The notes beneath the pieces were generated by a model. That model had not been told where the DNA came from. It worked only from the letters and a program-made list of their open reading frames with translations, and did no database searches. Below are positions 530-15,049 of a DNA stretch of 25,857 nt, in pieces. The translations under genes were made by a program, and so were the position numbers. The stretch lies in the IMG/VR virus record IMGVR_UViG_3300014720_000166, positions 1-25,857 of that record, one strand, 5' to 3'. Source of the DNA: a virus. How positions within the stretch are numbered: the first letter of the stretch is position 1; every line of letters begins with the position of its first letter.

Positions 530-542
530 ACGAGGGTTTTGT

Positions 543-581: not shown

Positions 582-2206
582 ATAAAGAAAAAATCATCGA
601 AGAGGTTTTAAAAGAATACTCTTTTTTAATGGAAGACGGTGGTATAAGTGATCAAATAGATCAAGATGTATTGCTTACTGCGATAGAAAATCTTGGATAT
701 GATGATTATTTTGTCGCTGAAAAGTTGTGTGAAGAAACATCAACCAGCAACAACAAGTTTATATCGGATCTTAAAAGCAAAAAGAGTTTATCAGATGAAG
801 ATATTGCTATTTTAAAGCAATTAGTTGGTCCTAGATACATGATTATTGATGAAGAACTCAAGTCTGTAAAACTAAACACCGTACACGTTCCTGACAATTT
901 TCCGGGTACAGAATCAGATCCAAGAGAAATTACTATATCTCAAATGGAAGAGTTTTTGGCAAGAGAAAAGGCACAAGGACGTAAACTTCGAATTTCACAA
1001 TCATCGACCAAAGTAAGAATTTATGCGGGTCCAGAAAATTTGTCTATATTTCTTGTAGGAACCGGTCTTAAACTATATGGAAAGAGCAAAGTTCCTGATA
1101 ACTTTTCAATTGAATTCAAAAAGTTTCTAAGATTGTTGGATTTCTATAAAGTGTATTCCAATGATATTGAGTTTAAAGAAAGTGTATCAGCTGGTTTGTC
1201 TTCACAAGATTTGCAAGTAAACAACATCAATCAGTATTTTGCCAAAAACAATCCTGATAAAATACCGTTTCATTTGTATATTCAAGATGGTCCACACGTA
1301 GTTGATTGTAAGGTGATGATTGATGCTGCTCAAAACATATCAGGAAGTGGAAAAGCAGACTTTGCATTGAAAAACAAAAATCTTGAAGCGTTTTGGGTAT
1401 CTTTCAAAGCAGCAAACTTTTTTGACAAACGTGATCGATCAAAGTTAGCACCTCCGGGATTTGAAGAATATGGACCCAGCATGTCGATTGGTGAAAAGTT
1501 GTCTGGAAATCCTACTTGGAACAGATTGATGGTAAAGTTAACAAAAGGAATGATCAAAGTTCTTCAAAACAATTTTATTGATTTGACCAATAAAAAAGTA
1601 ACATTTGGTCCAGATCCATTTGCTCCTAAAGTTCAAATTATAACTCATGTTGATGGTGTTGCTATTGAAACTATTGTAAACAACGATGAAGAAAAACTTC
1701 GTTATATGCGTGCTAAAGCTGCTGCTATTAACAAGTTGGTTGCACGACAAGATTTGAAGAAAAAGTTGGTTTATTTTGCGCCCAAAACCTTTTCGGTTCT
1801 TATGGACTTCTTGGATGGTACTGATGTAACCAAAGAAATTGCTGGTAAAGCCATATATGGTGTAGATTTTGAGTTTGGCAAAGACAAACCATTTGGACGT
1901 GAAAATGTTAACATATTGATGCAGTCCAAAACTCCAATCACTGTAGAAACACATGTATTGAAAAATAAACAAAATGCGTTGTTGATCAAAACAGACGAAC
2001 GTGGCAGTGTATTGTTCAATCCAAATTTGCCTCTTCCAAAAGATATGGACGATCCAATTTTGGCATATAGACCCGTGTTTAATCCTACATTTATTGTGAA
2101 TGAACATCACTTGGAAGTTGTAAATAAAGTAGGAATGTTGTTTTTGGGAGTCAGAATATTTATATTACCCGCTGCCAAAGCCAGTGGTGCTGTTGTGATT
2201 AAATGA
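578..2206 (+). CDS. Conserved phage protein, possible PD-(D/E)XK nuclease-like fold
   Basis: The protein has 542 residues from the ATG at 578. An upstream TTG at 539 would extend it by 13 codons, but the ATG fits the leader overlap and the MNKEKIIEEVLKEY opening, which is typical of such phage proteins. I cannot assign a function. Around residues 255-280 it carries ISGSGKADFALKNK followed by a strand ending SFKA. Asp261 and Lys277 lie as expected for the D...xxK half of a PD-(D/E)XK nuclease core, and related phage proteins with an SGTPKADF...SHK pattern are familiar to me. No other catalytic signature is clear. The C-terminal half is rich in beta-like stretches and ends with FILPAAKASGAVVIK. 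It starts 48 nt after the polymerase and ends 1 nt before the next ATG, so it is probably cotranscribed with them. The nuclease reading is an inference; a structural or accessory DNA role is equally possible. Confidence 0.6.
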   Translation: MNKEKIIEEVLKEYSFLMEDGGISDQIDQDVLLTAIENLGYDDYFVAEKLCEETSTSNNKFISDLKSKKSLSDEDIAILKQLVGPRYMIIDEELKSVKLNTVHVPDNFPGTESDPREITISQMEEFLAREKAQGRKLRISQSSTKVRIYAGPENLSIFLVGTGLKLYGKSKVPDNFSIEFKKFLRLLDFYKVYSNDIEFKESVSAGLSSQDLQVNNINQYFAKNNPDKIPFHLYIQDGPHVVDCKVMIDAAQNISGSGKADFALKNKNLEAFWVSFKAANFFDKRDRSKLAPPGFEEYGPSMSIGEKLSGNPTWNRLMVKLTKGMIKVLQNNFIDLTNKKVTFGPDPFAPKVQIITHVDGVAIETIVNNDEEKLRYMRAKAAAINKLVARQDLKKKLVYFAPKTFSVLMDFLDGTDVTKEIAGKAIYGVDFEFGKDKPFGRENVNILMQSKTPITVETHVLKNKQNALLIKTDERGSVLFNPNLPLPKDMDDPILAYRPVFNPTFIVNEHHLEVVNKVGMLFLGVRIFILPAAKASGAVVIK

Positions 2207-2207
2207 T

Positions 2208-2882
2208 ATGAAGATTTATAAAAATGTCACTCAATTGGTAAATGAAATATGTTTAGATAGTCGTGTTGAAAGCGGCATGTTTGACATGTTTAATGATCAA
2301 CATATGAGTGTGTTGAGAGAGAAGTTGACAGAAATGGGTTTGCCTGAAAACGAAGTGGTTGAAATTGCTAATGCCGTAATTGAAGGCAAGTATCCAGAAC
2401 GTCAGGCATACAACGCAAATGGTATTCTGGTCACATTTCCCAATGCTGACTACAAACAACGTGCAATACGTCGTGGAACTCATTTTGAAGAGGATCCTAC
2501 CAAGGGTCAATCCAACTTGGATTATGACACTTCTACACCTGATCAACCAACTCAAGAACCAACATCAGGCGAAGCACCAGTTCAAGTGGAACCTGCTACA
2601 ACTGCTGTTGCTCAAAGTGATACACAACTACCACAACCTGTTGTGAATGTTCAAAACACGGTTACTACAGACGATTTGAAAACAAGAAGTCCTCAACAAA
2701 AAATCAAAGATGCTGATGAAGTTGAAAAGATTCTTACAACAGAATTTACGTTGGAAGAAGCTGCACAACACAATTGGGTTCGTGGCGAAGGCAACAGTTG
2801 GTACAATTCCGACGGTGCTTTGGTTGGTCATGAATGGTATTGCCTCAACAGCAAATCCAAGAAAATTCTATCATCGAGATGA
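2208..2882 (+). CDS. Conserved phage protein of unknown function
   Basis: The protein has 224 residues and starts 1 nt after the preceding stop. The N-terminal part (about 1-95) looks globular and conserved, with KYPERQAYNANGILVTFPNA and RGTHFEEDPTKGQSNLDY, a pattern I associate with uncharacterised proteins of marine T4-like phages. Residues about 105-165 form a Pro/Thr/Gln/Val-rich, low-complexity linker. The C-terminus (about 175-224) contains NWVRGEGNSWYNSDGALVGHEWYCLNSKSKK, which could be a small separate domain. No catalytic motif was recognised. Its stop overlaps the ATG of the next gene as ATGA (2879-2882), which suggests translational coupling. The linker resembles those that tether a small binding domain, but that is speculation. 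Confidence 0.62.
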   Translation: MKIYKNVTQLVNEICLDSRVESGMFDMFNDQHMSVLREKLTEMGLPENEVVEIANAVIEGKYPERQAYNANGILVTFPNADYKQRAIRRGTHFEEDPTKGQSNLDYDTSTPDQPTQEPTSGEAPVQVEPATTAVAQSDTQLPQPVVNVQNTVTTDDLKTRSPQQKIKDADEVEKILTTEFTLEEAAQHNWVRGEGNSWYNSDGALVGHEWYCLNSKSKKILSSR

Positions 2883-3271
2883 AAGACACCCAATTATTAT
2901 GTACGTTTACAGTTCCTAATGACTATCCAACAGTTGTTGAACAAATTAAATCGTTTTATTTGTTATCCAACAATCGAATTTTTGCATTTTCCAATGAAAA
3001 AAATGTCAACGAACTGTATTTGACATATAATATTGTGATGCGGGATCGATCCATCAAAAAATTGCCCAATACTATATCAATACATCGTAAAAAACAGACC
3101 AATACTTTGTATACTTTGAATGCCATGAATAATCTCATCACCGAGGAGAACAATGGTGTTTTTGATAAAACTTTTCAATTAAATTGGGACTACTATAAAA
3201 ACTCATTGATTATAACAAATGAGGCGTCTGTTAAAATAATATCATTGAAAATTTTTGATATTATAAGTTGA
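2879..3271 (+). CDS. Conserved phage protein of unknown function
   Basis: The protein has 130 residues from the ATG at 2879, chosen because it overlaps the preceding stop as ATGA. An upstream in-frame start at 2834 would lie well inside the previous gene. The sequence reads MKDTQLLCTFTV... and has a central SIHRKKQTNTLYTLNAMNNLI segment followed by NWDYYKNSLIIT. It appears to be a mixed alpha/beta soluble protein without signal peptide or membrane segment. I recognise the pattern from uncharacterised proteins of large tailed phages but know no function. It is the last gene of the cluster that starts upstream of the window. A promoter-like sequence for the next gene overlaps its stop codon. 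Confidence 0.62.
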   Translation: MKDTQLLCTFTVPNDYPTVVEQIKSFYLLSNNRIFAFSNEKNVNELYLTYNIVMRDRSIKKLPNTISIHRKKQTNTLYTLNAMNNLITEENNGVFDKTFQLNWDYYKNSLIITNEASVKIISLKIFDIIS

Positions 3272-3296
3272 AGTTTTGGAGCAGTTGCCCTATAGT
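3268..3296 (+). promoter_or_regulatory. Possible sigma70-type promoter for the ssDNA-binding protein gene
   Basis: TTGAAG (3268-3273) and TATAGT (3291-3296) are separated by 17 nt. The -35 element overlaps the stop of the preceding gene. Transcription would start near 3303, leaving a leader of about 84 nt before the ATG at 3387. That leader contains a 9-bp direct repeat, agttatgtg, at 3294-3302 and 3310-3318, and a long unstructured A/T-rich stretch. Confidence 0.42.
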
Positions 3297-3386
3297 TATG
3301 TGAGTAATAAGTTATGTGTATTCAGTTTCGAGTGAAATTGAATTGATTAACTCATTACTACTTAACAAATTAACAAATAAATAATT

Positions 3387-4262
3387 ATGGCAATTGACCT
3401 ATCTAAGATTAAGAGTCGTTTGAACTCTTTGACAAATACCAATCAAAAATCTTCTATGCTTTGGAAGCCAAAGCCTGGAAAGCAAACGATTCGTATTGTT
3501 CCCTACAAGTATCAACCAGATACTCCATTCATTGAGTTGAAGTTTCACTTCGGCATCAACAACAAGACCTATTTGAGTCCCGATTCCTTTAACCGTCCAG
3601 ATCCTATCGTTGAGTTTAGCAATAGACTCAAGAAGACTGGCTCCAAGGAGGATTGGGTGATGGGCCGCAAGATGGAGCCCAAGATGCGTACTTATGCTCC
3701 TGTGATTGTTCGTGGTGAAGAGGACGAGGGTGTCAAGTTCTGGGGATTCGGAAAGCAGGTATATCAGGAAATTCTATCGATCATGGCAGATCCTGATTAC
3801 GGTGATATCAGTGATCTTGCTTCGGGACGTGATATTGTGGTTGAGTTTCGTACAGCTGAAGACAGTGGAAAGAATTTTCCAGAGACTTCAATTCGTGTGA
3901 AGCCAAACGCAACACTCGCTGTTGATCCGAAGGATGCTGACGCTCTTGAATCAATCAAGAATCAAACTGATATTTTGGATCTATTTCCAGAGCCAAAGTA
4001 CAACGAACTCAAGGAGGTTATGAACGCTTGGTTGCATCCTGAGGAGGCTGCAACAACTACCGAGACCTCTGTTAATACGGTAGTTGATGAAGATGACACA
4101 CAGCCTGTTACCAAAACTGTTATTGTTGAATCTGCTGCACCAGCAGCTGAAGCTAAGACCGTTGCTAACAAGACTGCTGTTAACAAGTCGCCTACCGCAA
4201 CTGCTGCAAAGATCAATACAGATGACCTAAGTAAGGCATTTGATAATCTTTTCAATAGTTAA
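3387..4262 (+). CDS. gp32-like single-stranded DNA-binding protein
   Basis: The protein has 291 residues and matches the T4 gp32 plan. A basic N-terminus (MAIDLSKIKSRLNSL) is followed by LWKPKPGKQTIRIVPY and the OB-fold core with RTYAPVIVRGEEDEGVKFWGFGKQVYQEIL. A low-complexity Thr/Ala/Val-rich linker (about 220-275) leads to the C-terminal tail TDDLSKAFDNLFNS. Proteins of this family coat ssDNA and recruit replication and recombination partners through the tail. The region that carries the zinc ligands in T4 gp32 has no cysteine here (NNKTYLSPDSFNRPDPIVEF), so the zinc ribbon appears to be absent. No Shine-Dalgarno sequence precedes the ATG; the leader is A/T-rich, as at gp32 genes where translation is autoregulated, but autoregulation is not shown. 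A strong terminator follows. Confidence 0.85.
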   Translation: MAIDLSKIKSRLNSLTNTNQKSSMLWKPKPGKQTIRIVPYKYQPDTPFIELKFHFGINNKTYLSPDSFNRPDPIVEFSNRLKKTGSKEDWVMGRKMEPKMRTYAPVIVRGEEDEGVKFWGFGKQVYQEILSIMADPDYGDISDLASGRDIVVEFRTAEDSGKNFPETSIRVKPNATLAVDPKDADALESIKNQTDILDLFPEPKYNELKEVMNAWLHPEEAATTTETSVNTVVDEDDTQPVTKTVIVESAAPAAEAKTVANKTAVNKSPTATAAKINTDDLSKAFDNLFNS

Positions 4263-4274
4263 TAAACCCTATTA

Positions 4275-4310
4275 GGAGAGGTGGTAGGTAAACTGCCACC
4301 TCTCCTTTTT
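4275..4310 (+). terminator. Rho-independent terminator after the ssDNA-binding protein gene
   Basis: A perfect 10-bp GC-rich stem, ggagaggtgg (4275-4284) with ccacctctcc (4296-4305), encloses an 11-nt loop and is followed by TTTTT (4306-4310). It is the strongest terminator in the window and would limit read-through of the highly expressed ssDNA-binding protein gene into the recombinase gene. Confidence 0.92.
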
Positions 4311-4327
4311 CATTTCAATAAAAAGTT

Positions 4328-5518
4328 ATGCCTGAAGATACACCAAAAAAGAAAAAGGTGTCAACTCATGTAACGCATGAAGTTGACTCACAGAGAGACG
4401 ACCTTGTAGAATCACTTGCAGATGTTTTGAATAAAGCAAACAAGGATTCTGGAAAGTGTGCGTTTTTCTTGGACCAAAAGGAAGATCCATCGACAATTAC
4501 AGATTGGATCAGCACAGGTTGCGACATCTTGGATCTCGCAATTTCAAATCGTCCACATGCTGGTATTCCAGTTGGACGTATTACTGAGATTACCGGACTT
4601 GAAGCGTCTGGTAAAAGCTTGTTAGCCGCACATTTATTGGCTGAAACTCAAAAGAAAGGTGGACTTGCAGTATTTATTGATACTGAACAGTCAGTTTCTC
4701 ATGACTTTTTGGCTGCTATTGGTGTTGATATACAAAAGATGTTGTATGTTGCTGCTCATACAGTAGAAGACATCTTTGAAAAGATTGAAACGATGATTGC
4801 TCACGTTCGTAAATCAAGTCGTGATCGATTGGTTACAATTGTTGTTGATAGTGTTGCTGCTGCCTCAACCAAGGCAGAATTGGAAGCGGATCACGGCAAA
4901 GACGGTTTTGCTACTGGAAAGGCCATTATCATTTCCAAGGCGATGCGTAAGATCAACGATATGATTGGTAAACAACGTATTGCTTTGATTTTCACCAATC
5001 AACTACGTGTTAATCTTCAGGCAGCGATGTTTGGAGACAAGTACATTACAAGTGGTGGCAAGGCCATTCAGTATCATGCTAGTGTTCGTCTTCGTTTGAA
5101 GGGTATGGGAGCACTAAAGGTTACTCAAAATGGTGAACCTGCACATATTGGTGTCAAGACACGTGCGGTTGTTGTCAAGAATCGTATGGGACCACCAATG
5201 AGATTTGCTGATTTTAGCATATTCTTTGATAGTGGTATTGATAATTATGGCAACTGGATTGAAGTGTTGAAGAAGCACTCAATTATTACTGGTGCCAAGT
5301 CACCTTACAATTATACCAAGAACAATGGTGAAGCTGTTAAGATTGATATCAAGACGTTTGCTAAAGACATGAAGGTTGATGCAGAACTTCGTGAGGAGTT
5401 GTATCAAAAGATTGTTGAAGTAGCAGTTATGAAGTATAAATCACCAGACAGCGAAATTCGTGAGGATGTAGAAGTTGACGAATCAGAGGATGCAGAAGAA
5501 GTTGGTGGAGAAGAATAA
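4328..5518 (+). CDS. uvsX: UvsX/RecA-type recombinase
   Basis: The protein has 396 residues. The Walker A loop GLEASGKS lies at residues 90-97, followed by LAVFIDTEQSVSHDF and the Walker B-like strand LVTIVVDSVAAAST. The FTNQLRVN segment corresponds to the RecA FINQ... region, and TSGGKAIQYHASVRLRLKG corresponds to the RecA TTGGNALKFYASVRLDIRR region, which includes the DNA-binding loop. These proteins form ATP-dependent filaments on ssDNA and catalyse strand invasion, which in T4-like phages also primes replication. The N-terminus is basic (PKKKKVSTHVTHE). The C-terminus is strongly acidic (DVEVDESEDAEEVGGEE), as in RecA, where it moderates DNA binding. The gene lies after a terminator with only about 17 nt in between, and I see no clear promoter, so it may depend on read-through. 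The 5'-nuclease starts 5 nt after its stop. Confidence 0.92.
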   Translation: MPEDTPKKKKVSTHVTHEVDSQRDDLVESLADVLNKANKDSGKCAFFLDQKEDPSTITDWISTGCDILDLAISNRPHAGIPVGRITEITGLEASGKSLLAAHLLAETQKKGGLAVFIDTEQSVSHDFLAAIGVDIQKMLYVAAHTVEDIFEKIETMIAHVRKSSRDRLVTIVVDSVAAASTKAELEADHGKDGFATGKAIIISKAMRKINDMIGKQRIALIFTNQLRVNLQAAMFGDKYITSGGKAIQYHASVRLRLKGMGALKVTQNGEPAHIGVKTRAVVVKNRMGPPMRFADFSIFFDSGIDNYGNWIEVLKKHSIITGAKSPYNYTKNNGEAVKIDIKTFAKDMKVDAELREELYQKIVEVAVMKYKSPDSEIREDVEVDESEDAEEVGGEE

Positions 5519-5523
5519 TTGTT

Positions 5524-6585
5524 ATGAGTTTCAATCAAGACGAAAAGAAAAGACTGTTCTCTATTTTTGAGAATGTTTCACAAGAAGACAAGAACGCATT
5601 ATCTAACCGAACACAAGATTCGGATGTGCTCTTGGTTGACGGACTCAATGCTTTTATTCGCGCGTACGCGGCCATGCCATCATTGAATGAAGATGGTCTT
5701 CATACAGGTGGTGTGGCTGGGTTTTTAAAGAGTGTGGGTTATGCAATCAAATTGCTTAACCCCACTCGTTGCGTCATTATTTTTGATGGAAACGGCGGCA
5801 GTATGAAACGTCGTAAGATTTATCCACAATACAAGGATAAACGTAGTACAAAAATAAGACTCAACAGAGCATATTCAGAACTTTCAACCGGTGAGTTGGA
5901 AGAAAAGAATATGAAGTCACAACTTTTAAGATCGGTACACTATTTGGATTGCTTGCCAGTATCAACTATGGCAATTGATCATGTAGAAGCGGATGATACT
6001 ATTGCATATGCTGCGCAACAGTATTTTAAATCCAACGTTACCATTATGAGTGCTGATAAAGATTTTTTACAGCTGACCAATGAACGAATCAAAGTTTATA
6101 GTCCCACGAAGAAAAAGCTGTATGGATGTGCAGAAGTTTTTGACGAATACGGTATTAGTTGTAAGAATTTAATTTGGTACAGAGTGTTAGAAGGCGATGT
6201 ATCAGATAACATTGATGGAATACAAGGTTCTGGTTTAAAAACAGTAATCAAATGTTTTCCATTTTTGGCAGAAGAACGTGAAGTTTCTTTAAATGAAATT
6301 TATACTTACTGTGAAAACAACAGTGCCAAGTATAAGCTATATCGTACAATTCTTGAAAATAAAGACATTGTACAAAGAAATTATACATTGATGCAACTCA
6401 AAGAAACTGAAATTCAAAGTTTCTCACAATTGCGTATCAATGAAATATTGGATCAGCCAATAAAGAAGCTGGATCGTATCAGCTTTTCCAAACTGGTAAC
6501 CGAAGATAAAATGTGGAATAATATTCCTAATTACCAAATTTGGCTCAACGAGTGTTTTAACAAACTCACTACGTTGGTACGATAA
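5524..6585 (+). CDS. RNase H / flap 5'-3' exonuclease
   Basis: The protein has 353 residues with the ordered acidic motifs of the FEN/5'-nuclease family. These are LLVDGLNAFIRAY (Asp39), IIFDGNGGSMKRRKIYPQYKDKR, DHVEADDTIAYAA, TIMSADKDFLQL, and VLEGDVSDNIDGIQGSGLKT, which leads into the helix-3-turn-helix. It would remove RNA primers and 5' flaps from lagging strands, the role of T4 RNase H. The length is a little above the 305 residues of the T4 enzyme; the extra part is an N-terminal extension of about 30 residues before the first catalytic motif. It lies 5 nt after the recombinase and before the helicase, consistent with a replication operon. A GGAG sequence is present but about 13 nt from the ATG, so initiation may rely on coupling. 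Confidence 0.9.
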   Translation: MSFNQDEKKRLFSIFENVSQEDKNALSNRTQDSDVLLVDGLNAFIRAYAAMPSLNEDGLHTGGVAGFLKSVGYAIKLLNPTRCVIIFDGNGGSMKRRKIYPQYKDKRSTKIRLNRAYSELSTGELEEKNMKSQLLRSVHYLDCLPVSTMAIDHVEADDTIAYAAQQYFKSNVTIMSADKDFLQLTNERIKVYSPTKKKLYGCAEVFDEYGISCKNLIWYRVLEGDVSDNIDGIQGSGLKTVIKCFPFLAEEREVSLNEIYTYCENNSAKYKLYRTILENKDIVQRNYTLMQLKETEIQSFSQLRINEILDQPIKKLDRISFSKLVTEDKMWNNIPNYQIWLNECFNKLTTLVR

Positions 6586-6657: not shown

Positions 6658-7470
6658 ATGAACGAAAATAACCAAGTAATTGATAACCTGAAAAAATACG
6701 GAAGCGAATTTCAAATCAAGTGTATATCAGGAATACTAAGCGATAAGTCTTTTCTCGAAAGACTTTCTGATATCATTGATCCAACATCGTTTGAATCGGA
6801 TGCACATCAATGGATTGTTAAAGAAACTGTCGCATACTTTATGCGATACAAAGATACGCCAACACTTAATGTATTCAAAATACAAGTGGATACAATTGTA
6901 AGTGAGGATTTGAAAAAGAACGTCATTGATCAGTTGAGAAATGTGTATCAAAAAATCACAGACAGCGATATCAAGTTTGTAAAAGAACAGTATTTGGAGT
7001 TTTGTAAGAGTCAGAAACTCAAGCATGCTATCTTTGATAGTGTTAAACATCTCAAGACTGGAAATTATGAACAGGTAAAGGCATTGGTTGATAGTGCGTT
7101 AAAGGCTGGTATGGAACGCAACATTGGTCATGACTATATGACAGATGTTGAAAAGCGTATGAGTGTGATGGCACGTAATACAATCAAGACCAACTGGACT
7201 GAAGTTGATACCATCATGGACGGCGGACTCGCTGCTGGTGAACTGGGTATCATTACAGCGTGTGCTGGTAGCGGTAAATGTATAGGTCCGAACACAGAAA
7301 TTGAAATTGAATATCATGAATTCGGAATAGAAACTACGAGTTCATCGGGTAAAGTATTTGTATTGTGGATTAATCCATTTGAAAAATACAAAATAGATGA
7401 AACTGAATTATTTGGATGGCAAGTGGAAAATGTTTTTTATGAAATTGAAAAAATAAAAGATGTTGTTTAA
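6658..7470 (+). CDS. Replicative helicase (gp41/DnaB-like) N-extein fused to N-terminal half of a split intein
   Basis: The product has 270 residues. Residues 1-207 are the N-terminal part of a DnaB/gp41-type hexameric helicase: a helical N-terminal domain, then NWTEVDTIMDGGLAAGELGIITACAGSGK, which runs into the Walker A loop. The loop is interrupted after its Lys207. Cys208 begins a sequence with intein block A character (CIGPNTEIEIEYHEF), and the frame stops 63 residues later without a block B. The missing Ser/Thr of the P-loop is supplied by the gene at 8268, whose C-extein starts with Ser-Trp. Joining the two exteins restores AGSGKSW and gives a helicase of 462 residues, close to T4 gp41. 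The helicase would unwind DNA ahead of the polymerase. I infer that trans-splicing is required, because neither product has a complete ATP-binding loop. Confidence 0.85.
   Translation: MNENNQVIDNLKKYGSEFQIKCISGILSDKSFLERLSDIIDPTSFESDAHQWIVKETVAYFMRYKDTPTLNVFKIQVDTIVSEDLKKNVIDQLRNVYQKITDSDIKFVKEQYLEFCKSQKLKHAIFDSVKHLKTGNYEQVKALVDSALKAGMERNIGHDYMTDVEKRMSVMARNTIKTNWTEVDTIMDGGLAAGELGIITACAGSGKCIGPNTEIEIEYHEFGIETTSSSGKVFVLWINPFEKYKIDETELFGWQVENVFYEIEKIKDVV
7279..7467 (+). other. Split intein, N-terminal fragment (63 residues)
   Basis: The fragment starts with the nucleophilic Cys of block A and carries C-x4-T-x-I (CIGPNTEI), the usual N-terminal splice-junction pattern. It continues with SSSGKVFVLWINPFEKYK and ends at a stop codon. 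The block B pattern normally found about 60-90 residues after the Cys is not here; it is found in the C-terminal fragment. The break therefore lies early in the Hint fold. The exact secondary-structure position of the split cannot be fixed by eye. Confidence 0.75.
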
Positions 7471-7555
7471 ATAAACATATAAATTGTCACTGGTATTGGT
7501 AAATATACATAAAAAATTAAATTTTTATGTTATATGTAACTATTTATTAATAATT

Positions 7556-8284
7556 ATGAATAATAATAAAAAAGAATTTTCAATCTATAGATACCAGTAT
7601 TGGATGCAAAAATATGGGATGACTGAAATTGATGCAAAAAACAAAGTATCTTTAATACAAAAACAAAATGCGAATAAATCGTCAAAAAAAGTTAAATCTG
7701 AATATTCTCATTTCAAAAAAGAATATTGGATAATTAAAAAAGGTTATAATGAATCCGATGCAATAAAAAAAGTATCTGAATTACAATCTAATCTTTCTAA
7801 AAAATCAAAAAAATTTAAAGGAAAGATTAGAACTGATGAAAGCAAAATAAAAATTTCAAATTCAATGAAAGCTAAAATTGCTCAAATTGGAAGTGGAAAT
7901 TGGGTTAGACATTTTGGTGAATTTAATGGTAATTCTAAAATTGAAAGAGAATTTTATTCTTATATTAAAGAAAATTTAAATGAAAATGTTAGAGCAAATA
8001 TTCCTATATTAAATTATGTGGTTGATATTTTACATGATAAAAAAATAATAGAATTTTATGGAGATTTCTGGCATGCAAATCCAAAATTTTATTTTGGCGA
8101 TGAATACATAAAATCGTTTAACATTAACAAAACAGCATATGAAATATGGTTGAATGATAATGTTAGAATTGACTTTTTAAAAAAGTTGGGTTATGATGTT
8201 CTAATAATTTGGGAAAATGATTGGAAAAAAAATAAACAAGAATGTATAGAAAAAATTAAAAAATTTTATGAGATTATTAATTAA
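7556..8284 (+). CDS. Free-standing homing endonuclease, Vsr-like (EDxHD) catalytic domain
   Basis: The protein has 242 residues from the ATG at 7556; the frame is open upstream to 7484 but only with a poor TTG start. The N-terminus has two copies of a YW...G...A...VSxxQ motif, at residues 15-35 and 57-77, exactly 42 residues apart, probably DNA-binding repeats. A lysine-rich segment with TDESKIKISNSMKAK follows, NUMOD3-like in character. The C-terminal half has the Vsr-type nuclease core: IEREFYSYIKENL, VVDILHDKKIIEFYGDFWH (Asp157, Glu166, Asp170, His173) and VRIDFLKKLGYDVLIIWENDW. This family was described in fractured genes with split inteins. It would cut alleles lacking the insertion and promote copying of itself. 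It lies between the helicase halves and overlaps the next start by 17 nt. Its DNA is much more A-rich than the flanking exteins, a sign of separate origin. Confidence 0.82.
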   Translation: MNNNKKEFSIYRYQYWMQKYGMTEIDAKNKVSLIQKQNANKSSKKVKSEYSHFKKEYWIIKKGYNESDAIKKVSELQSNLSKKSKKFKGKIRTDESKIKISNSMKAKIAQIGSGNWVRHFGEFNGNSKIEREFYSYIKENLNENVRANIPILNYVVDILHDKKIIEFYGDFWHANPKFYFGDEYIKSFNINKTAYEIWLNDNVRIDFLKKLGYDVLIIWENDWKKNKQECIEKIKKFYEIIN

Positions 8285-8675
8285 AAATGTTCGTGAAAAA
8301 ATTAAAATCAAAGATTTGTTTGATAAGTTAAATATTAAAAATGAAGAAAATGCTATTGAACAATTAAAATTTCCATTAAGAGTAAATACTCCATTTGGAT
8401 TTAAAAAAATAGTAACGGCATTTCGTACTGAAAAACAAAAAACAATAACTTCATATTTTGGAAACAATAAAACATTGAAAACATCCGGAAAACATAGATT
8501 AAAGGTTAACGGATCTTGGAAATATGTTGATGATATAAATGTAAATGAGTTAGTTGAAACTGAAACCGGACTTACAAAATTGATTTCAAAGAAAACGGGA
8601 AAAGAAGAAATATTATATGATATTTCGGTAGAAGAAGTGCATTGTTATTATAGTAACGGAATTCTTTCTCATAAT
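8268..8675 (+). other. Split intein, C-terminal fragment (136 residues, includes blocks B, F, G)
   Basis: The fragment ends His-Asn (SHN) before Ser137, the standard C-terminal splice junction with penultimate His and cyclising Asn. YDISVEEVHCYYSNGILSHN is a clear block F/G. The fragment also holds the block B-like GKHRLKVNGSWKYVDDI, so it makes up about two thirds of the intein. This is the reverse of common split inteins such as DnaE, gp41-1 and NrdJ-1, where the C-fragment is short. Confidence 0.8.
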
Positions 8676-9443
8676 TCATGGGTACTAAGTAAGTTGGGAG
8701 CTGAAGCAATGAAGCAAGGCAAAAATGTGGTTCATTTTACACTAGAGTTGAATGAAAACTATGTGGGTCTTCGTTACGATAGTTGCTTTACTGGAATTGA
8801 CTTTCAGAATATTCGTAACAACGTTGATGTTATTCGTAACAAAATTCAACAAGTGCCTGGCAAGTTGTTTATCAAGTATTTTCCTATCAAAACTGTTAGT
8901 GCTCATCATTTGAAGATGCATGTGGAACGTATTGCGATGTTGGGAAGCAAGATCGACATGATTATTGTAGATTATGCAGATATTCTACGTCCGTCTCAAA
9001 GTGATCGAAACAGCAACAGTTATAGTGAAGCGGGTGGTATTTACGAAGAACTACGCGGTGTAGCTGGTGAACTACAAGTTCCTATTTGGAGTGCCAGCCA
9101 AAGCAATCGTGGTGCAATGGAAGAAGATATCATTCAAGCCAATAATATCGCCGATAGTTATCGAAAAATTATGACAGCTGATTTTGTTATGTCACTTAGT
9201 CGTAAAGTTACCGATAAAGTAGCCAACACAGCACGTTTTCACGTCATCAAGAATCGTTTCGGTCCTGATGGTATGACTTTTCCAAGTCGAATGAATGCTG
9301 GATGTGGTGATATTCAGATTTTCTCTGAAAACTCTAAAGATGGTATTTCCATTTTGAATGAAATGGGAGATACTGAAAATCTTGTTAAGAAGGCACTATC
9401 TTCTAAGTGGCAAGCTCATAACTCTGACAACGACAACGATTAA
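8268..9443 (+). CDS. C-terminal half of split intein fused to helicase (gp41/DnaB-like) C-extein
   Basis: The product has 391 residues. Residues 1-136 are intein: KIKIKDLFDKLN, then VNTPFGFKKIVTAF. A block B-like segment (LKTSGKHRLKVNGSWKYVDDINVNELVETE) follows, then block F/G (ILYDISVEEVHCYYSNGILSHN). Ser137 is the first C-extein residue and completes the Walker A loop as GK-S. The extein continues with VVHFTLELNE, MIIVDYADILRPS (Walker B), an EELRGVAGELQVPIWSASQSNR segment matching DnaB motif H3, and FHVIKNRFGPDGMTFP. These are the conserved features of the RecA-fold helicase motor domain. The start at 8268 lies inside the endonuclease gene; a later ATG at 8341 is possible but would remove the KIKIKDL segment that belongs to the intein. 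Base composition changes visibly at the intein/extein border near 8676. Confidence 0.85.
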   Translation: MRLLIKNVREKIKIKDLFDKLNIKNEENAIEQLKFPLRVNTPFGFKKIVTAFRTEKQKTITSYFGNNKTLKTSGKHRLKVNGSWKYVDDINVNELVETETGLTKLISKKTGKEEILYDISVEEVHCYYSNGILSHNSWVLSKLGAEAMKQGKNVVHFTLELNENYVGLRYDSCFTGIDFQNIRNNVDVIRNKIQQVPGKLFIKYFPIKTVSAHHLKMHVERIAMLGSKIDMIIVDYADILRPSQSDRNSNSYSEAGGIYEELRGVAGELQVPIWSASQSNRGAMEEDIIQANNIADSYRKIMTADFVMSLSRKVTDKVANTARFHVIKNRFGPDGMTFPSRMNAGCGDIQIFSENSKDGISILNEMGDTENLVKKALSSKWQAHNSDNDND

Positions 9444-9543: not shown

Positions 9544-11829
9544 ATGAATAAAGAAATTTTTATAAAGAAGCGAAGCGGTGCGTTAGAGAAGTTCAGTGCT
9601 GACAAAATCAACAAAGTTTTGCAATGGGCCACCGACGGTATCAAAGGTGTTAGTTTTGAAGAAGTTGCAATGAATGCGCATTTGTCGTTTTTTGACGGAA
9701 TGACATCCAACGACATACATGCGATGTTGATTGAAGCTGCTGCCAATTTGATTACTGAAGAAAAACCCAATTATCAGTATGTGGCATCAAGATTGTTGAA
9801 TTATCAACTTAGAAAAAAGGTTTGGGGAGGTAAAAATCCACCAAAGTTATATGATCTTGTTAAAACCAACATTGAAAAGTTTGTTTATGATGATAAAATT
9901 TTGGATTGGTATACAAAGAAGGATTTTGACAAGTTGGATGAATATCTAAAACATGATCGTGACTTGGATTTCACATATGCAGGTATCAAACAGTTGTGTG
10001 ATAAGTATTTGATTCAAAATCGTGTTACCAAAGAGATATACGAGACTCCGCAATTCGCTTATATATTGATTGCAATGACGTTTTTCAAGGATTATAAGGA
10101 TAATCGTGTGGAGTATATCAAAAAGGCCTACAACTACTTTAGCAAACACAAGATCAATCTACCCACACCAATTATGGCGGGTGTACGATCTGTAATGAAG
10201 AGTTATGCAAGTTGTTCTTTGTTCACTGTTGATGATACTCTCAAGAGTATTTTCAGCAACAACAGTGCTGTAGGATATGCAACTGCAAGTCGTTATGGTA
10301 TTGGACTCAATTTGTCACGTTTGCGTGCTACAAACGCTCCAATTCGTAACGGTGAAGTGGTTCATACTGGTCCAATTCCTTTTGCCAAGACATTTGAGTC
10401 AACCGTAAAAAGTTGTCATCAAAATGGTATTCGTGGGGGAAGTGCCACAGTTAACTTTGCTTGGTTTCACTACGATATAATGGACATTTTGGTATTGAAA
10501 AACAATGCAGGTACTGATGATAATCGTGTACGTAAGTTGGATTACTGTATTGGATTGGATAAATTGATTTTTGAACGATTCATTCAAGGTAAGGATGTAA
10601 CTCTTTTCAGTTATCATGAGTGTGCTTCATTGTGGAACCGTTTTGGTTTTGCTGATTTCAAGGAAAAGTATGAAAAAGCAGAAGCAAACAAGAACATCAA
10701 GTTTAAGAAAAAGGTTTCGGCCAAAGAACTGATTGGTCTTCTCGCTAAAGAACGTCTTGAAACTGGTCGTATTTACACCATGTTTGTAGATCATGCTAAT
10801 GAACATGGTAGTTGGTTGGATCAAGTTGATACCAGCAATCTTTGCGTTGAGGTAAATCATCCATTAACTCCAATTGAAGATGTCAACGATACAAATGGTG
10901 AAATCGGTGTGTGTATTCTTGCTGCCGTCAATTGGCTTGAAGTTAAAGACGATGATGAAATGAAGAGTGTATGTGATGTTATTGTGAGAATGTTGGATGC
11001 ATTAATCGAACATCAAAATTACTTTGTACCTGCTGCTGAAAACTTTGCCAAAAATCGTCGTAGTCTTGGTGTAGGTGTAAGTAACTTGGCTGCTTTATTG
11101 GCAAGAGAAGGTTTGAAGTATTGGGATGTAGGTGCACCCAATCTTGTTGCCAAATGGATGGAGAAGCAAAGTTACTATTTGATTGAAGCTAGTATGGAAA
11201 TGGCAAAAGAACTTGGTAAGTGTGAAAAGTTTGATCGAACCAAGTTTAGTCAAGGTATTTTGCCAATAGATACATACAAACGAGACATTGATACGTTTAT
11301 TACCGAACCGTTGCATATGGACTGGGAATCTCTTCGTAACAACATTAAACAATATGGAATGCGTCACAGTACGTTGACGGCATGTATGCCTGTTGAATCT
11401 AGTAGTGTAATTCAAAGTAGTACCAATGGCATTGAACCGCCACGTAGTTTGATTAGTTACAAGGGCAGCAAGAGCAACATTTTGCCAGTTGTAGTTCCTG
11501 GCATTGACAAGTACAAGGAAAATTATACTTTTGCGTTTGACATGCCTAACAATGAAGGATATCTTAAAGTGGCTGCTGCCATTCAAAAGTTTACTGATAT
11601 GAGTATCAGTGTCAATACTTATTATATACCTTCTCGTTATGAAAAGAATAAGGTTCCAGTTCAAGACGTTATAAGAGACATGTTGTTGGCATACAAGTAT
11701 GGATTGAAGAATCTGTATTATGCCAACACAGATGATGGTGATAAACAAACAGCCATGGAAGAAACGAAGAAGGTGGAGCCTAAGATTGAACAATCTAGTG
11801 GTTGTGAAAGTGGAGCATGTGTAATGTAA
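9544..11829 (+). CDS. nrdA: Class Ia ribonucleoside-diphosphate reductase, alpha subunit
   Basis: The protein has 761 residues, the same length as E. coli NrdA. It converts NDPs to dNDPs together with NrdB. An ATP-cone-like N-terminus (IKKRSGALEKFSADKINKVL) comes first. Cys224 (YASCSLF) and Cys457 (GVCILAAVN) match the active-site redox pair. Asn432-Leu-Cys434-Val-Glu436 matches the thiyl-radical cysteine motif NLCxE. The C-terminal SSGCESGACVM has Cys754 and Cys759, the residues that shuttle electrons from thioredoxin or glutaredoxin. LYYANTDDGD matches the paired tyrosines of the radical-transfer chain. All catalytic residues are present and no intein or intron is seen. About 100 nt of A/T-rich DNA precede it, with TATAGT at 9524-9529 but no matching -35 element. 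nrdB starts 6 nt after the stop. Confidence 0.96.
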   Translation: MNKEIFIKKRSGALEKFSADKINKVLQWATDGIKGVSFEEVAMNAHLSFFDGMTSNDIHAMLIEAAANLITEEKPNYQYVASRLLNYQLRKKVWGGKNPPKLYDLVKTNIEKFVYDDKILDWYTKKDFDKLDEYLKHDRDLDFTYAGIKQLCDKYLIQNRVTKEIYETPQFAYILIAMTFFKDYKDNRVEYIKKAYNYFSKHKINLPTPIMAGVRSVMKSYASCSLFTVDDTLKSIFSNNSAVGYATASRYGIGLNLSRLRATNAPIRNGEVVHTGPIPFAKTFESTVKSCHQNGIRGGSATVNFAWFHYDIMDILVLKNNAGTDDNRVRKLDYCIGLDKLIFERFIQGKDVTLFSYHECASLWNRFGFADFKEKYEKAEANKNIKFKKKVSAKELIGLLAKERLETGRIYTMFVDHANEHGSWLDQVDTSNLCVEVNHPLTPIEDVNDTNGEIGVCILAAVNWLEVKDDDEMKSVCDVIVRMLDALIEHQNYFVPAAENFAKNRRSLGVGVSNLAALLAREGLKYWDVGAPNLVAKWMEKQSYYLIEASMEMAKELGKCEKFDRTKFSQGILPIDTYKRDIDTFITEPLHMDWESLRNNIKQYGMRHSTLTACMPVESSSVIQSSTNGIEPPRSLISYKGSKSNILPVVVPGIDKYKENYTFAFDMPNNEGYLKVAAAIQKFTDMSISVNTYYIPSRYEKNKVPVQDVIRDMLLAYKYGLKNLYYANTDDGDKQTAMEETKKVEPKIEQSSGCESGACVM

Positions 11830-11835
11830 TAAAAT

Positions 11836-12894
11836 ATGAAAACCGTACTAAATAAAAAGAATATCGATCAACTAAGAAATCCAATGTTTTTTGGTGAGGA
11901 TCTGTCTCTACAGAGATATGATCAAATCAAGTATCAAAAGTTTTATGAACTTTATGATCAACAGTTGAATTTCTTTTGGAGACCACAGGAAGTATCGTTG
12001 ATCAAGGATTTGAGTGACTACAAGGTATTGTCAGATGAAGAACGTTTTGTGTTTGACAGTAATCTCAAGTTTCAAACCATGACAGATAGTATGTTGAGTC
12101 GTAGTATTCATGAGTTGATGAAACATGTTACCAATCCAGAGTTGGAAATTTGTATGAATACTTGGAGCTTCTTTGAAACCATTCATAGCAACAGTTACAC
12201 TTACATCTTGAATAACGTATATCCTGATGCAACCAAGTTTTTTAACAGTATTTTGGAGGATCCTGAGATTGTTAAACGAGCCACTGCTCTATCCAAAAAG
12301 TATGATCAGTTGTTGACTTCATCTGATGATCCTAGACAACAGTTGTTTGATGCTGTATTAGCAACTCAAATTACTGAGGGATTGGTATTTTATGTGAGTT
12401 TTGCATGTAGTTTCTACTTTGGCTATCGTGGAAAGATGGAAGGTAATGCAAAAATCATCAAATTTATCAGTAGAGATGAAAATCTGCATGTTGCCATCAC
12501 TCAAAACATCATGAAAAACTGGGCAAACAACAAAGATGAAGGATTTCAGGACATTGTTGCCAAAAGTGAAGACAAAATTTATGCCACATATGAAATGGCA
12601 GTAAATGCTGAAAAGGAATGGGCTGATTATTTGTTTAGCAAAGGTAACTTGGTTGGTTTGACATCGGATAGTTTGAAGAATTACGTTGAGTGGTTGGCCA
12701 ACAACAGACTTTCGAGTTTGGGTTATCGAAAAATCTATACCAATGCCAAAACAAATCCACTATCTGGATGGTTGGACAGTTATTATGACAGTAAAAAACT
12801 TCAAGTTGCACCTCAGGAAACTGAACTTAGTAGTTATGTAAAAGGAATTGATAATACTATTGCAGCCGGTGCGTTTGATGATTTTAAGTTATAA
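11836..12894 (+). CDS. nrdB: Class Ia ribonucleotide reductase, beta subunit
   Basis: The protein has 352 residues. The di-iron/tyrosyl radical site is complete: Asp84, Glu114 and His117 with radical Tyr121 in ETIHSNSY (E. coli Glu115, His118, Tyr122). Glu181 lies in TEGLVFYVSF, and Glu215 and His218 lie in RDENLHV. The C-terminus (AAGAFDDFKL) has the acidic/hydrophobic tail that docks on NrdA. The subunit generates and stores the tyrosyl radical passed to NrdA for each turnover. The gene follows nrdA by 6 nt without a clear Shine-Dalgarno sequence, and a terminator closes the pair 16 nt after its stop. Confidence 0.96.
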   Translation: MKTVLNKKNIDQLRNPMFFGEDLSLQRYDQIKYQKFYELYDQQLNFFWRPQEVSLIKDLSDYKVLSDEERFVFDSNLKFQTMTDSMLSRSIHELMKHVTNPELEICMNTWSFFETIHSNSYTYILNNVYPDATKFFNSILEDPEIVKRATALSKKYDQLLTSSDDPRQQLFDAVLATQITEGLVFYVSFACSFYFGYRGKMEGNAKIIKFISRDENLHVAITQNIMKNWANNKDEGFQDIVAKSEDKIYATYEMAVNAEKEWADYLFSKGNLVGLTSDSLKNYVEWLANNRLSSLGYRKIYTNAKTNPLSGWLDSYYDSKKLQVAPQETELSSYVKGIDNTIAAGAFDDFKL

Positions 12895-12910
12895 AAATAA
12901 AACAACACGA

Positions 12911-12938
12911 AGAACACCCAAAAGGGTGTTCTTTTTTT
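12911..12938 (+). terminator. Rho-independent terminator after nrdB
   Basis: agaacaccc (12911-12919) and gggtgttct (12924-12932) form a perfect 9-bp stem with an AAAA loop. A run of seven Ts ends at 12938. It separates the nucleotide reductase pair from the next gene. Confidence 0.93.
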
Positions 12939-12977
12939 GTTGTTATATGTAAATTTGACATATTTATACACATATAT

Positions 12978-13640
12978 ATGAAAATTAATCACCTTCAACA
13001 AATCATCACTGAGTGTTTTGAATCGGTTTTGGAAGAGCGTCAAAAGAAACAAAAGGTTGCCACTGCGTTAAAAAAGTTGGTAATGGAAGTGATTGAAGAA
13101 AAGAAAGCGAATTTTGAAAAAACTTGTTTGGAGATTCAAGAAGAGTTGGACAAAGAAGTTAAGAAGATTGACAAAAAGTATTCGGTGGTCAAAAATGATG
13201 CAGGCAATTTTGAAATGTGTGGATGTGACCCACATCATATTTTTGTTCGTCCACGTTGGTACAACAACTTTGAAGTGTTGGCATTCAAGAATAAAACTGA
13301 CAGAACCAAGAAAATTGGTTTGAGTTATGATGAAGTCAAAGAGTTTTTGAAAGCTACGTTGAACAACACTGATCAAAACTACGTCAACAAAGCCTACAAC
13401 AAGGCAGCCGAAAACAGTGTAGACAAAGAAAAGAAAAAGAATCAGGGTGATGGTCCACAAAAAACCGATGTAAAGGTTGAAGATGCTGTGGAAAAGAAAG
13501 AAGATTTGCCAGATCAACCAATGCAAGACGTAAATCTTAAGAAGGTTGAAAAGCAAGTGGATCATTCTGTAAAGGGTGAAAAGCCAAAATACAAGTTTCC
13601 TAAACAAAAGGATGACGATTTGACCGTTAAGTTCAAATGA
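12978..13640 (+). CDS. Charged protein of unknown function
   Basis: The protein has 220 residues with an extreme content of Lys, Glu and Asp. The N-terminus (MKINHLQQIITECFESVLEE) resembles the short helical openings common in T4-like phage proteins. Residues about 20-70 (RQKKQKVATALKKLV... to ...EELDKEVKKIDKK) are likely a coiled coil. A small segment with MCGCDPHHIFVRPRWYNNFEVLAFKNK (about 79-108) contains Cys-x-Cys and His-His and could bind a metal. The last 80 residues are disordered-looking, Lys/Asp/Gln-rich and end FPKQKDDDLTVKFK. No family is recognised. It follows the nrdB terminator by 39 nt, with no convincing promoter. Confidence 0.6.
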   Translation: MKINHLQQIITECFESVLEERQKKQKVATALKKLVMEVIEEKKANFEKTCLEIQEELDKEVKKIDKKYSVVKNDAGNFEMCGCDPHHIFVRPRWYNNFEVLAFKNKTDRTKKIGLSYDEVKEFLKATLNNTDQNYVNKAYNKAAENSVDKEKKKNQGDGPQKTDVKVEDAVEKKEDLPDQPMQDVNLKKVEKQVDHSVKGEKPKYKFPKQKDDDLTVKFK

Positions 13641-13653
13641 GTAAATAAAAACT

Positions 13654-13950
13654 ATGAAAATTAAAGCATTGATTAGTTTAGCACTATTAACATCTATATC
13701 AGCTACTGCTGGTCATTTTAGTTGGGGTATTTCGTTGGGATTTGGTGGAGGATATTGTGCACCGGTATATTGTCCACCACCTGTAGTTTATGTGCCTGTA
13801 GTTTATTCACAGCCAGTAGTAGTTGCACCACCCACGGTGGTATATACTTCTGTAGTTTATTCGCCACAAGTTGTTGTAATGCCACAACCAGTGGTTTATT
13901 ATCCTCAGCCAATTGTTTACGTTGTTGGCAGACATGGACATAGACGTTAA
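13654..13950 (+). CDS. Small exported Pro/Val/Tyr-rich protein
   Basis: The protein has 98 residues. The first 19 form a Sec signal peptide: Lys-x-Lys, a hydrophobic core ALISLALLTSI, and an Ala-Thr-Ala cleavage site before Gly20. The mature part starts HFSWGISLGFGGGYCAPVYCPPP and then consists of imperfect repeats of Pro-Val-Val-Tyr type (PVVYVPVVYSQPVVVAPPTVVY...), ending with a basic GRHGHRR. It is probably placed in the periplasm or outer membrane. Similar low-complexity exported proteins occur in bacteria. In a phage it could act on the envelope or be a gene taken from a host, but no function is established. It follows the charged protein by 13 nt and is closed by its own terminator. Confidence 0.68.
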   Translation: MKIKALISLALLTSISATAGHFSWGISLGFGGGYCAPVYCPPPVVYVPVVYSQPVVVAPPTVVYTSVVYSPQVVVMPQPVVYYPQPIVYVVGRHGHRR

Positions 13951-13974
13951 AATTTTTTCAATACATTGTGAACG

Positions 13975-14005
13975 CCGCTACGAATGAAAATTCTAGCGGT
14001 TTTTT
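13975..14005 (+). terminator. Rho-independent terminator after the exported protein gene
   Basis: ccgcta (13975-13980) pairs with tagcgg (13994-13999) around a 13-nt loop, followed by six Ts (14000-14005). The promoter-like element of the next gene begins 1 nt later, so this is a compact operon border. Confidence 0.8.
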
Positions 14006-14006
14006 G

Positions 14007-14034
14007 TTGACTTTTTCTAGAATGACTATATGAT
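14007..14034 (+). promoter_or_regulatory. Sigma70-like promoter for the AAA+ ATPase gene
   Basis: TTGACT (14007-14012), 16 nt, then TATGAT (14029-14034). Both hexamers, the spacing and the following GT are identical to the element at 15016. Transcription would start near 14041, about 12 nt before the ATG at 14054. The preceding terminator supports a new transcription unit here. Confidence 0.68.
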
Positions 14035-14053
14035 GTTGAAAAATAAAAAACAT

Positions 14054-15007
14054 ATGAGCAAAACCTCCAAGAAAGACATCAACTCAATTCTCGCTGCGTC
14101 TGTTAAGCTTCGTCCTGACGACGTTATTATTTCCGATACCAAGTGGAAGTATTTGGTTCGTTCAATTTTGTGTGGAAAGAACATTTTGATGGTTGGACCC
14201 ACTGGATGCGGCAAGACTTTGGTTGCACAAACTGCTTCCAAGGCTCTGAATCGTCCTTTCTTTTTCTTCAATATGGGTTCTACACAAGATGCACGTAGTG
14301 CTCTGATTGGAAACACGCATTTTGAAAAGGAGACGGGTACCATTTTTAGTGAGTCAACGTTTGTGAAGGCCATTCAGACTCCCAACGCTGTAATTCTTTT
14401 GGACGAAATTAGTCGTTCACATCATGATGCTGCAAATATCATGATGACGGTGCTTGATACACTTCAACGTTATCTTCGTTTGGACGAAAAAAAGGAGAGT
14501 GACGTAATTCGTGTTGCTGATGGAGTGTGTTTTATTGGTACCGCTAATATTGGCAATCAATATACTGCCACCCGTGTTATGGATCGTGCTCTTATGGATC
14601 GTTTTTCCGTAAAGATTGAGATGGATTTTCTGGACAAGCAATCTGAACTCAATTTGTTGGTGAATCGATTCAAAATTGATACTACAAATACGAACGTTTT
14701 CAACACCATCAGTTCAATTTGTGACATTGCGTCACATTGTCGAGATCAATCTCGTATGGAAGACGGTCGTTTGACTAACTTTTTGTCTACTCGAGCGGTG
14801 TGTGAGATGACTGAGTTGGTTTGTGACGGATTTAGCCTCAAGGAAATTGCTGATGTGGCTATTTATCCTGAATTTTCTTATGAGGGCGGTCTTGAGAGTG
14901 AACGTACTTATGTAAAGCAGCTGGTTCAAAAGTATGTTCCTACTGAATCTACCAGTGATCCTTTGATCAAGGGTAACGGTTCGGTCAATGCTACTGTTCC
15001 ATTCTAA
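14054..15007 (+). CDS. MoxR/CobS-type AAA+ ATPase
   Basis: The protein has 317 residues from the ATG at 14054 (MSKTSKKD). ATGs at 14030 and 14033 are in frame but overlap the -10 element of the promoter. Walker A is GPTGCGKT (48-55), Walker B is VILLDE (Asp117-Glu118), sensor 1 is GTANIG (162-167), and RALMDRF is the arginine-finger region. The order and spacing fit MoxR-like or CobS-like AAA+ proteins, of which T4-like cyanophages carry a member annotated cobS. These ATPases usually act with a von Willebrand A partner to remodel or insert metals into target proteins. Exactly such a partner follows at 15050. The target is unknown; cobalt chelation is only one possibility and no other cobalamin gene is present here. 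Confidence 0.88.
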   Translation: MSKTSKKDINSILAASVKLRPDDVIISDTKWKYLVRSILCGKNILMVGPTGCGKTLVAQTASKALNRPFFFFNMGSTQDARSALIGNTHFEKETGTIFSESTFVKAIQTPNAVILLDEISRSHHDAANIMMTVLDTLQRYLRLDEKKESDVIRVADGVCFIGTANIGNQYTATRVMDRALMDRFSVKIEMDFLDKQSELNLLVNRFKIDTTNTNVFNTISSICDIASHCRDQSRMEDGRLTNFLSTRAVCEMTELVCDGFSLKEIADVAIYPEFSYEGGLESERTYVKQLVQKYVPTESTSDPLIKGNGSVNATVPF

Positions 15008-15015
15008 AAAAAGTG

Positions 15016-15043: not shown

Positions 15044-15049
15044 GTCTAC

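What the first reader, a model, noticed from the sequence alone, without database searches (positions are those of the whole stretch)
6658..9443. Atypically split intein in the helicase P-loop: break lies between blocks A and B
The N-gene ends 63 residues after the block A Cys and has no block B. The C-gene carries a block B-like segment (GKHRLKVNGSWKYVDDI) as well as blocks F and G, in 136 residues. Common split inteins (DnaE, gp41-1, gp41-8, NrdJ-1) break near the old endonuclease site and leave a short C-fragment. Breaks near the N-terminus are known in a few metagenomic inteins of the AceL-TerL kind, but I am not aware of one in a gp41/DnaB P-loop. The N-fragment is longer than in those cases, so the split may be of an intermediate class.
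Basis: partly seen in the sequence, partly recalled or inferred. Interest (0 to 1): 0.82.

Follow-up and report, generated by a model that had tools for sequence, protein, structure and literature searches.

The report
Early-split intein interrupts phage helicase P-loop
In this virus the gene for its DNA-unwinding helicase is broken in two, with a DNA-cutting gene in between; each half carries part of a self-splicing protein element that should join the halves into one working enzyme, and its unusual early break point and a family of about 30 relatives show how such split elements gain, lose and perhaps even rejoin their parts.

Summary
The DnaB/gp41-type helicase is encoded in two genes. IntN has 63 residues (block A only). 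IntC has 136 residues (blocks B, F and G). A Vsr/EDxHD-type homing-endonuclease gene lies between them. The predicted spliced protein has 462 residues and a restored P-loop, GSGK|S.

The case is not isolated: about 30 distinct inteins at this site were found in viral contigs (23 with endonuclease, 6 split without, 1 contiguous). An AlphaFold model of the contiguous relative is a full Hint fold (pLDDT 91), closest in the PDB to the early-split VidaL intein. The break lies between strands 2 and 3, the known 'S1' site of VidaL and PolB16, not at a new intermediate place. IntN is long because it carries an inserted beta-beta-alpha segment (52-74 residues in most members, against 15-37 reported).

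Intein and helicase trees conflict, which points to homing. The endonuclease was lost at least five times while the split persisted. The contiguous form nests among split ones, so it probably arose by re-fusion. The isolated Vibrio phage vB_VmeM-32 also has an early-split helicase P-loop intein.

Verdict: new variant of a known kind. Trans-splicing is untested.

The parts
6658..7278 (+). helicase N-extein (207 aa), ends at GSGK of the P-loop
   Evidence: (phrog_19 DnaB-like helicase E 1.3e-24)
7279..7470 (+). IntN, 63 aa: Cys1 and block A hairpin, then inserted beta-beta-alpha segment (about residues 20-60), stop codon
7556..8284 (+). free-standing homing endonuclease, Vsr/EDxHD type (242 aa from ATG 7556; a TTG start at 7484 is possible)
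   Evidence: top PDB match I-Bth0305I catalytic domain
8268..8284 (+). 17-nt overlap: end of the endonuclease gene and start codon of the C-gene
8268..8675 (+). IntC, 136 aa: beta3/alpha1, block B, F and G, C-terminal Asn
8676..9443 (+). helicase C-extein (255 aa), Ser+1, restores GSGK|SWVL
   Evidence: (phrog_19 E 9.9e-44)

Best explanation
A mobile fractured-gene element has split the phage's only detected replicative helicase gene at the P-loop (GSGK|S). Splicing (inferred): the two precursors (helicase-N with IntN, and IntC with helicase-C) associate into one Hint fold and splice as a class 1 intein: Cys1 acyl shift, transesterification to Ser+1, Asn cyclisation. The product is a 462-aa helicase with an intact P-loop; before splicing neither half should have ATPase competence. 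Break site (shown by model of a relative and alignment): the S1 site between strands beta2 and beta3; IntN ends in an extra beta-beta-alpha insertion lying between beta2 and beta3, which probably adds interface to IntC (inferred). Mobility (tree conflict shown; cleavage inferred): the endonuclease between the halves cuts intein-less helicase genes, so the whole cassette is copied in by homing. Fate (trees and remnants shown): the endonuclease is repeatedly lost while the split stays, and in one lineage the halves appear to have re-fused into a contiguous intein.
For: Coordinates and motifs. Intein family matches. About 30 distinct relatives with the same insertion and break. The contiguous relative L106 carries the IntN 'tail' within one intein. 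AlphaFold of that intein: pLDDT 91.3, pTM 0.83, strands in the block A part, insertion E26-31/E36-39/E42-45/H46-62, then beta3 E71-81 and alpha1 H82-88. Foldseek top PDB match VidaL 6vgv, TM 0.76 by target, rmsd 1.9, followed by other inteins. Endonuclease model: top PDB match I-Bth0305I catalytic domain, with NGO0050 and Vsr also among the top hits. Purifying selection. Empty alleles GK|SW in close relatives. Extein tree puts the window with intein-less helicases (99/95), while its intein pairs with L002 (97/87); AU test rejects window+L002 as an extein clade, p 7e-5. Window/L002 dS: IntN 0.085 and IntC 0.56, against 1.9-2.7 in the exteins. Single DnaB_C in a 297-kb relative. Endonuclease remnants in L002, L113, L161, L162. 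No Rfam intron in the region.
Against: No splicing or cleavage experiment. The structure model is of a contiguous relative (about 50% identical), not of the window's two chains, which could not be folded together here. The window record is only 25.9 kb, so an unsplit helicase elsewhere in its genome is not excluded. The usual block B Thr is replaced by Ser (SxxH). The role of the IntN insertion is a guess. Endonuclease cleavage site and specificity are unknown.
Confidence: 0.9

Rival explanations
1. The helicase is simply broken: the endonuclease gene inserted into a contiguous intein and the halves no longer splice.
For: The endonuclease gene sits exactly between the halves; a contiguous version exists in L106.
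Against: Both halves are under purifying selection (dN/dS mostly 0.07-0.4), catalytic residues are invariant across the family, the break recurs in about 30 distinct contigs, and it persists after endonuclease loss. A phage with a 297-kb record has no other DnaB_C.
Confidence: 0.05
2. The interruption is an RNA intron that carries the endonuclease; mRNA splicing makes one contiguous precursor with a cis-splicing intein.
For: Phage endonuclease genes often sit in introns (established knowledge).
Against: No group I or II intron match even at a permissive threshold. The C-gene has its own start codon overlapping the endonuclease stop in the window and most members. In L115 and L128 the halves are separated by only 12 and 10 nt, too short for an intron. 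The intein C-fragment starts with Met at the same place in all split members.
Confidence: 0.02
3. The contiguous form (L106) is ancestral and the splits arose from it by endonuclease insertion, rather than L106 being a re-fusion.
For: Contiguous inteins are generally thought to be ancestral; L106 lies on a long branch (0.84), so its place is less sure; the AU test against a clade of its seven split neighbours without it gives only p 0.035.
Against: L106 nests in split clades in the intein tree (96/95 and 95/88) and its helicase is sister to split L100/L102 (98/97). The alternative needs several independent breaks at the same place, each with the C-gene start at the endonuclease end.
Confidence: 0.3

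Closest known systems
VidaL intein (PDB 6vgv/6vgw) and the S1-split UvsX intein of Pseudomonas phages MIJ3/PA5oct
   Same: Same S1 break between beta2 and beta3; P-loop insertion in a RecA-fold ATPase (for MIJ3, seen here: GESG|C...HN|SGKS with IntN 17 aa); an endonuclease gene homologous to the window's between the halves in MIJ3; closest fold in the PDB; MIJ3 IntC matches VidaL at 1.7e-35.
   Different: VidaL IntN is 16 aa (PMC13014065) without the insertion; the MIJ3 host protein is UvsX, not helicase; IntC sequence similarity to the window family is weak (profile E 1.8e-5).
AceL-TerL / GOS-TerL inteins (S2 split)
   Same: Early-split, short N-part, long C-part with blocks B, F and G; phage ATPase host gene.
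   Different: They break after helix alpha1 (S2, PMC13014065); here the alpha1 segment is in IntC, so the break is one element earlier; TerL host.
Fractured genes of Dassa et al. 2009 (gp41-1, gp41-8, NrdJ, IMPDH)
   Same: Enzyme gene broken by a split intein with a free-standing endonuclease between the halves. Some relatives here carry a second, canonical split intein at SQxNR|C in the same helicase.
   Different: Those known to me break at the old endonuclease site with a short IntC; the original paper was not held, so this is from memory and from citing papers.
PolB16 OarG intein
   Same: S1 break, natural early split (PMC10189870, PMC13014065).
   Different: IntN 15 aa, Ser1/Ser+1, PolB host; no insertion in IntN.
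Vibrio phage vB_VmeM-32 gp41 (KU160494, L082)
   Same: Helicase P-loop, early split before the alpha1 segment, endonuclease-like gene between the halves.
   Different: Inserted three residues upstream (GVN|TGKS), IntN about 27 aa without the insertion, +1 Thr; halves not recognised as helicase in the annotation.

Membership tests
Intein (class 1, Hint fold) | Cys1 block A, block B xxH, block F Asp, block G His-Asn, nucleophile +1 | tested here: met
   Cys1, S73xxH76, D118, H135-N136 and Ser+1; invariant in the aligned members
Intein (class 1, Hint fold) | Hint horseshoe fold | tested here: met
   model of the contiguous relative, pLDDT 91.3; the top PDB hits are inteins; the window's own two-chain complex was not modelled
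Intein (class 1, Hint fold) | protein splicing activity | not testable with these tools
   needs expression
Naturally early-split ('atypically split') intein, S1 type | two separate genes, break between blocks A and B | tested here: met
Naturally early-split ('atypically split') intein, S1 type | break after beta2, before beta3 | tested here: met
   break falls in the linker before beta3, but after an inserted beta-beta-alpha segment, so not immediately after beta2
Naturally early-split ('atypically split') intein, S1 type | IntN of 15-37 aa | tested here: not met
   63 aa; 52-74 in most members, 45 and 33 in two. This is the reported range (PMC13014065), not a mechanistic requirement
Fractured gene (Dassa type) | conserved enzyme gene + split intein + free-standing endonuclease gene between | tested here: met
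EDxHD / Vsr-type homing endonuclease | catalytic fold like I-Bth0305I | tested here: met
   3r3p top match, TM 0.79 by target, E 3.6e-3; 3hrl (NGO0050) and Vsr also among the top hits; invariant D157, E166, D170, H173; homologues annotated VSR
EDxHD / Vsr-type homing endonuclease | cuts the intein-less allele | not testable with these tools
   tree conflict is indirect support

The most novel reading that the evidence does not exclude
Splitting is reversible in this family: the contiguous intein of L106/L107 was re-formed by fusion of two previously separate genes after endonuclease loss. The family thus shows the steps endonuclease-bearing split, endonuclease remnant, bare split with a 10-12 nt spacer, and fused. 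The conserved IntN insertion would be an added assembly module that stabilises association of the early-split halves.
Probability: 0.5. Interest if true: 0.68.

Novelty: new variant of a known kind. Interest (0 to 1): 0.55.

Why it matters
Natural early-split inteins are few and valued as ligation tools. This adds about 30 from one site, with a longer N-part and an extra segment that may aid assembly. The family also holds split forms with and without endonuclease and a contiguous form, so the question of how split inteins arise, and whether they can revert, can be tested on real sequences. In several members the helicase needs two separate trans-splicing reactions to be made.

Tried and rejected
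Rfam search for an intron in the gap: one chance hit only. First structure alignment A4 misaligned the C-fragments onto the IntN insertion; hhalign showed no real N/C repeat (0.2% probability), and A5 was rebuilt with fewer N rows. An extein tree that included the second intein in some rows gave false groups and was redone with trimmed exteins. tblastn hits of the C-gene in Bacillus CM1 and BM15 were uninterrupted helicases (CM1 read; BM15 has the same layout). GTDB genome scan with the N-gene found no relative. Direct PDB search with vB_VmeM-32 IntC gave nothing. Dassa 2009 and the PNAS VidaL paper are not held. I recall a 'VidaL T4Lh-1' intein whose name may mean T4-like helicase, which would be a closer precedent; I could not check it. 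Two-chain folding of the window's own halves was not possible with the tool.

Full report
WHAT IS THERE. The N-gene 6658-7470 (270 aa) carries 207 aa of a DnaB/gp41-type helicase ending ITACAGSGK, then Cys208 (codon 7279) and 62 further residues to the stop. The C-gene 8268-9443 (391 aa) starts with 136 aa of intein ending ILSHN, then SWVLSK of the helicase; joined, the exteins give 462 aa with a P-loop GSGKS. Family searches agree: phrog_19 DnaB-like helicase in both (E 1.3e-24 and 9.9e-44), Pfam Intein_splicing (3.9e-8, just under its cut-off) and NCBIfam intein_Cterm in the C-gene. Between them lies an ORF of 242 aa (7556-8284) whose last 17 nt overlap the C-gene start. Only one DnaB_C match exists in this 25.9-kb viral record.

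NOT ALONE. A tblastn-confirmed scan of IMG/VR gave seven close relatives with the same layout (L002-L008; L002 lacks the endonuclease) and 73 loci that match only the helicase part; those read have an uninterrupted helicase, for example GSGK|SWVL. Scans with IntN and IntC alignments extended this to about 30 distinct inteins at the same GK|S site. Of the 30 compared, 23 have an endonuclease gene between the halves, 6 are split without one (L002, L113, L115, L128, L161, L162), and one (L106, identical to L107 over the intein) is contiguous in one ORF. IntN is 33-74 aa (52-74 in all but two); IntC is 135-142 aa. In a 297-kb relative (G011) the split helicase is again the only DnaB_C match.

WHERE THE BREAK IS. 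The contiguous L106 intein (204 aa) contains the whole IntN 'tail', so the tail is an insertion in the intein and not a random extension. AlphaFold with N- and C-fragment rows gave pLDDT 91.3 and pTM 0.83: beta1/beta2 at 7-20, then an insertion of three short strands and a helix (26-62), a low-confidence linker around 61-70, then beta3 (71-81) and alpha1 (82-88), and the rest of a Hint fold. The break in the split members falls in that linker. The best PDB match is the VidaL intein 6vgv (TM 0.76 by target, rmsd 1.9), then other inteins. A 2026 paper states that natural early break sites seen so far are S1 (after beta2: VidaL, PolB16) and S2 (after alpha1: AceL-TerL, GOS-TerL), with IntN of 15-37 aa (PMC13014065). 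The window is therefore S1, with a long IntN because of the insertion. hhalign found no repeat between IntN and IntC.

THE ENDONUCLEASE. The Pfam hits are marginal (DUF559, MTES_1575). The model (pLDDT 84) has the I-Bth0305I catalytic domain as top PDB match (TM 0.79 by target, E 3.6e-3), with NGO0050 and Vsr also among the top hits; homologues in Aeromonas and Tenacibaculum phages are annotated VSR endonuclease. D157, E166, D170 and H173 are invariant in 17 homologues. In many relatives the N-terminus adds a zinc-finger-like CxxC...H...H segment. I-Bth0305I exemplifies the EDxHD family (PMC3943268).

MOBILITY. Inteins of window and L002 are 92-93% identical in aa, with dS of 0.085 (IntN) and 0.56 (IntC), while their exteins have dS of 1.9-2.7. 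The intein tree joins window and L002 (97/87) with L008 (100/99). The extein tree puts the window with intein-less L009/L012/L019/L021 (99/95) and L002 with intein-less L027 (98/90). Holding window and L002 together in the extein tree is rejected (p 7e-5). This supports transfer of the intein between helicase genes; the endonuclease as its agent is inferred.

LOSS AND RE-FUSION. The endonuclease's presence or absence has changed at least five times by well-supported branches, and remnants show these are losses in at least four cases: L002 keeps the last codons of the endonuclease, L162 likewise, L113 about 30 codons and L161 about 84 codons, always next to the C-gene start. This fits the C-gene's translation start being embedded in the endonuclease 3' end, so that part cannot be deleted (inference). 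L128 has a 10-nt spacer and L115 a 12-nt one. L106, contiguous, nests inside a split clade in the intein tree (96/95, 95/88) and is sister to split L100/L102 in the extein tree (98/97). The AU test rejects the other seven as a clade without it only narrowly (p 0.035), and L106 sits on a long branch, so re-fusion is likely but not certain.

FUNCTION. IntN, IntC and endonuclease are under purifying selection: dN/dS mostly 0.07-0.40 between the window and relatives, and 0.05-0.15 among L100, L102 and L104. Catalytic residues are kept: Cys1, SxxH76 (Ser for the usual Thr), D118, H135, N136, Ser+1. Class 1 trans-splicing is therefore very likely; it has not been shown.

PRECEDENTS. Vibrio phage vB_VmeM-32 has an early-split helicase P-loop intein with an endonuclease-like gene between the halves (GVN|C...N|TGKS, IntN about 27 aa) that its annotation does not name as helicase. 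Pseudomonas phages MIJ3/PA5oct have an S1-split UvsX (read here in MIJ3: GESG|C...HN|SGKS, IntN 17 aa, homologous endonuclease between) whose IntC matches VidaL at 1.7e-35. The MIJ3 paper passages found describe only its PolB intein (PMC6892783). So the kind is known; the helicase GK|S family, the IntN insertion and the mix of states are, as far as I could check, new. Dassa 2009 and the VidaL papers could not be read.

Noticed in passing
L008, L092, L098, L113, L115, L124-L127: The same helicase carries a second, canonically split intein at SQxNR|C, so the enzyme is encoded in three pieces and needs two trans-splicing reactions.
   Followed up: partly
L171 (Pseudomonas phage MIJ3) 1540-4546: UvsX/RecA is S1-split in its P-loop with IntN of 17 aa, a Vsr-type endonuclease, and an IntC close to VidaL; not among the intein passages found in the MIJ3 paper.
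   Followed up: partly
L082 (Vibrio phage vB_VmeM-32) 1089-4164: Helicase gp41 split in the P-loop with an endonuclease-like gene between; the halves are not recognised as helicase in the public record. The UvsX-like gene at 203-754 begins with a Hint C-part too.
   Followed up: partly
L003:5275-6891: Ribonucleotide reductase NrdA ends in an intein N-part (DTSNLC LHPDTLVSTIIDN), a further split intein in the same phage.
   Followed up: no
L106:161-2197: RecA-like gene holds at least one contiguous P-loop intein (GLEA|C...HN|SGKS) and the start of another (YGDKF|C).
   Followed up: no
L089 (Delftia phage phiW-14) 2400-3000: TerL N-half with intein N-part appears unannotated upstream of the annotated TerL C-half; break after the first helix.
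   Followed up: no
window 539-6585 and 9544-17921: Several long ORFs of a T4-like gene set around the helicase (RecA-like, exonuclease, NrdA/NrdB, MoxR-type ATPase, VWA-type protein; names by eye) appear uninterrupted in the window.
   Followed up: no
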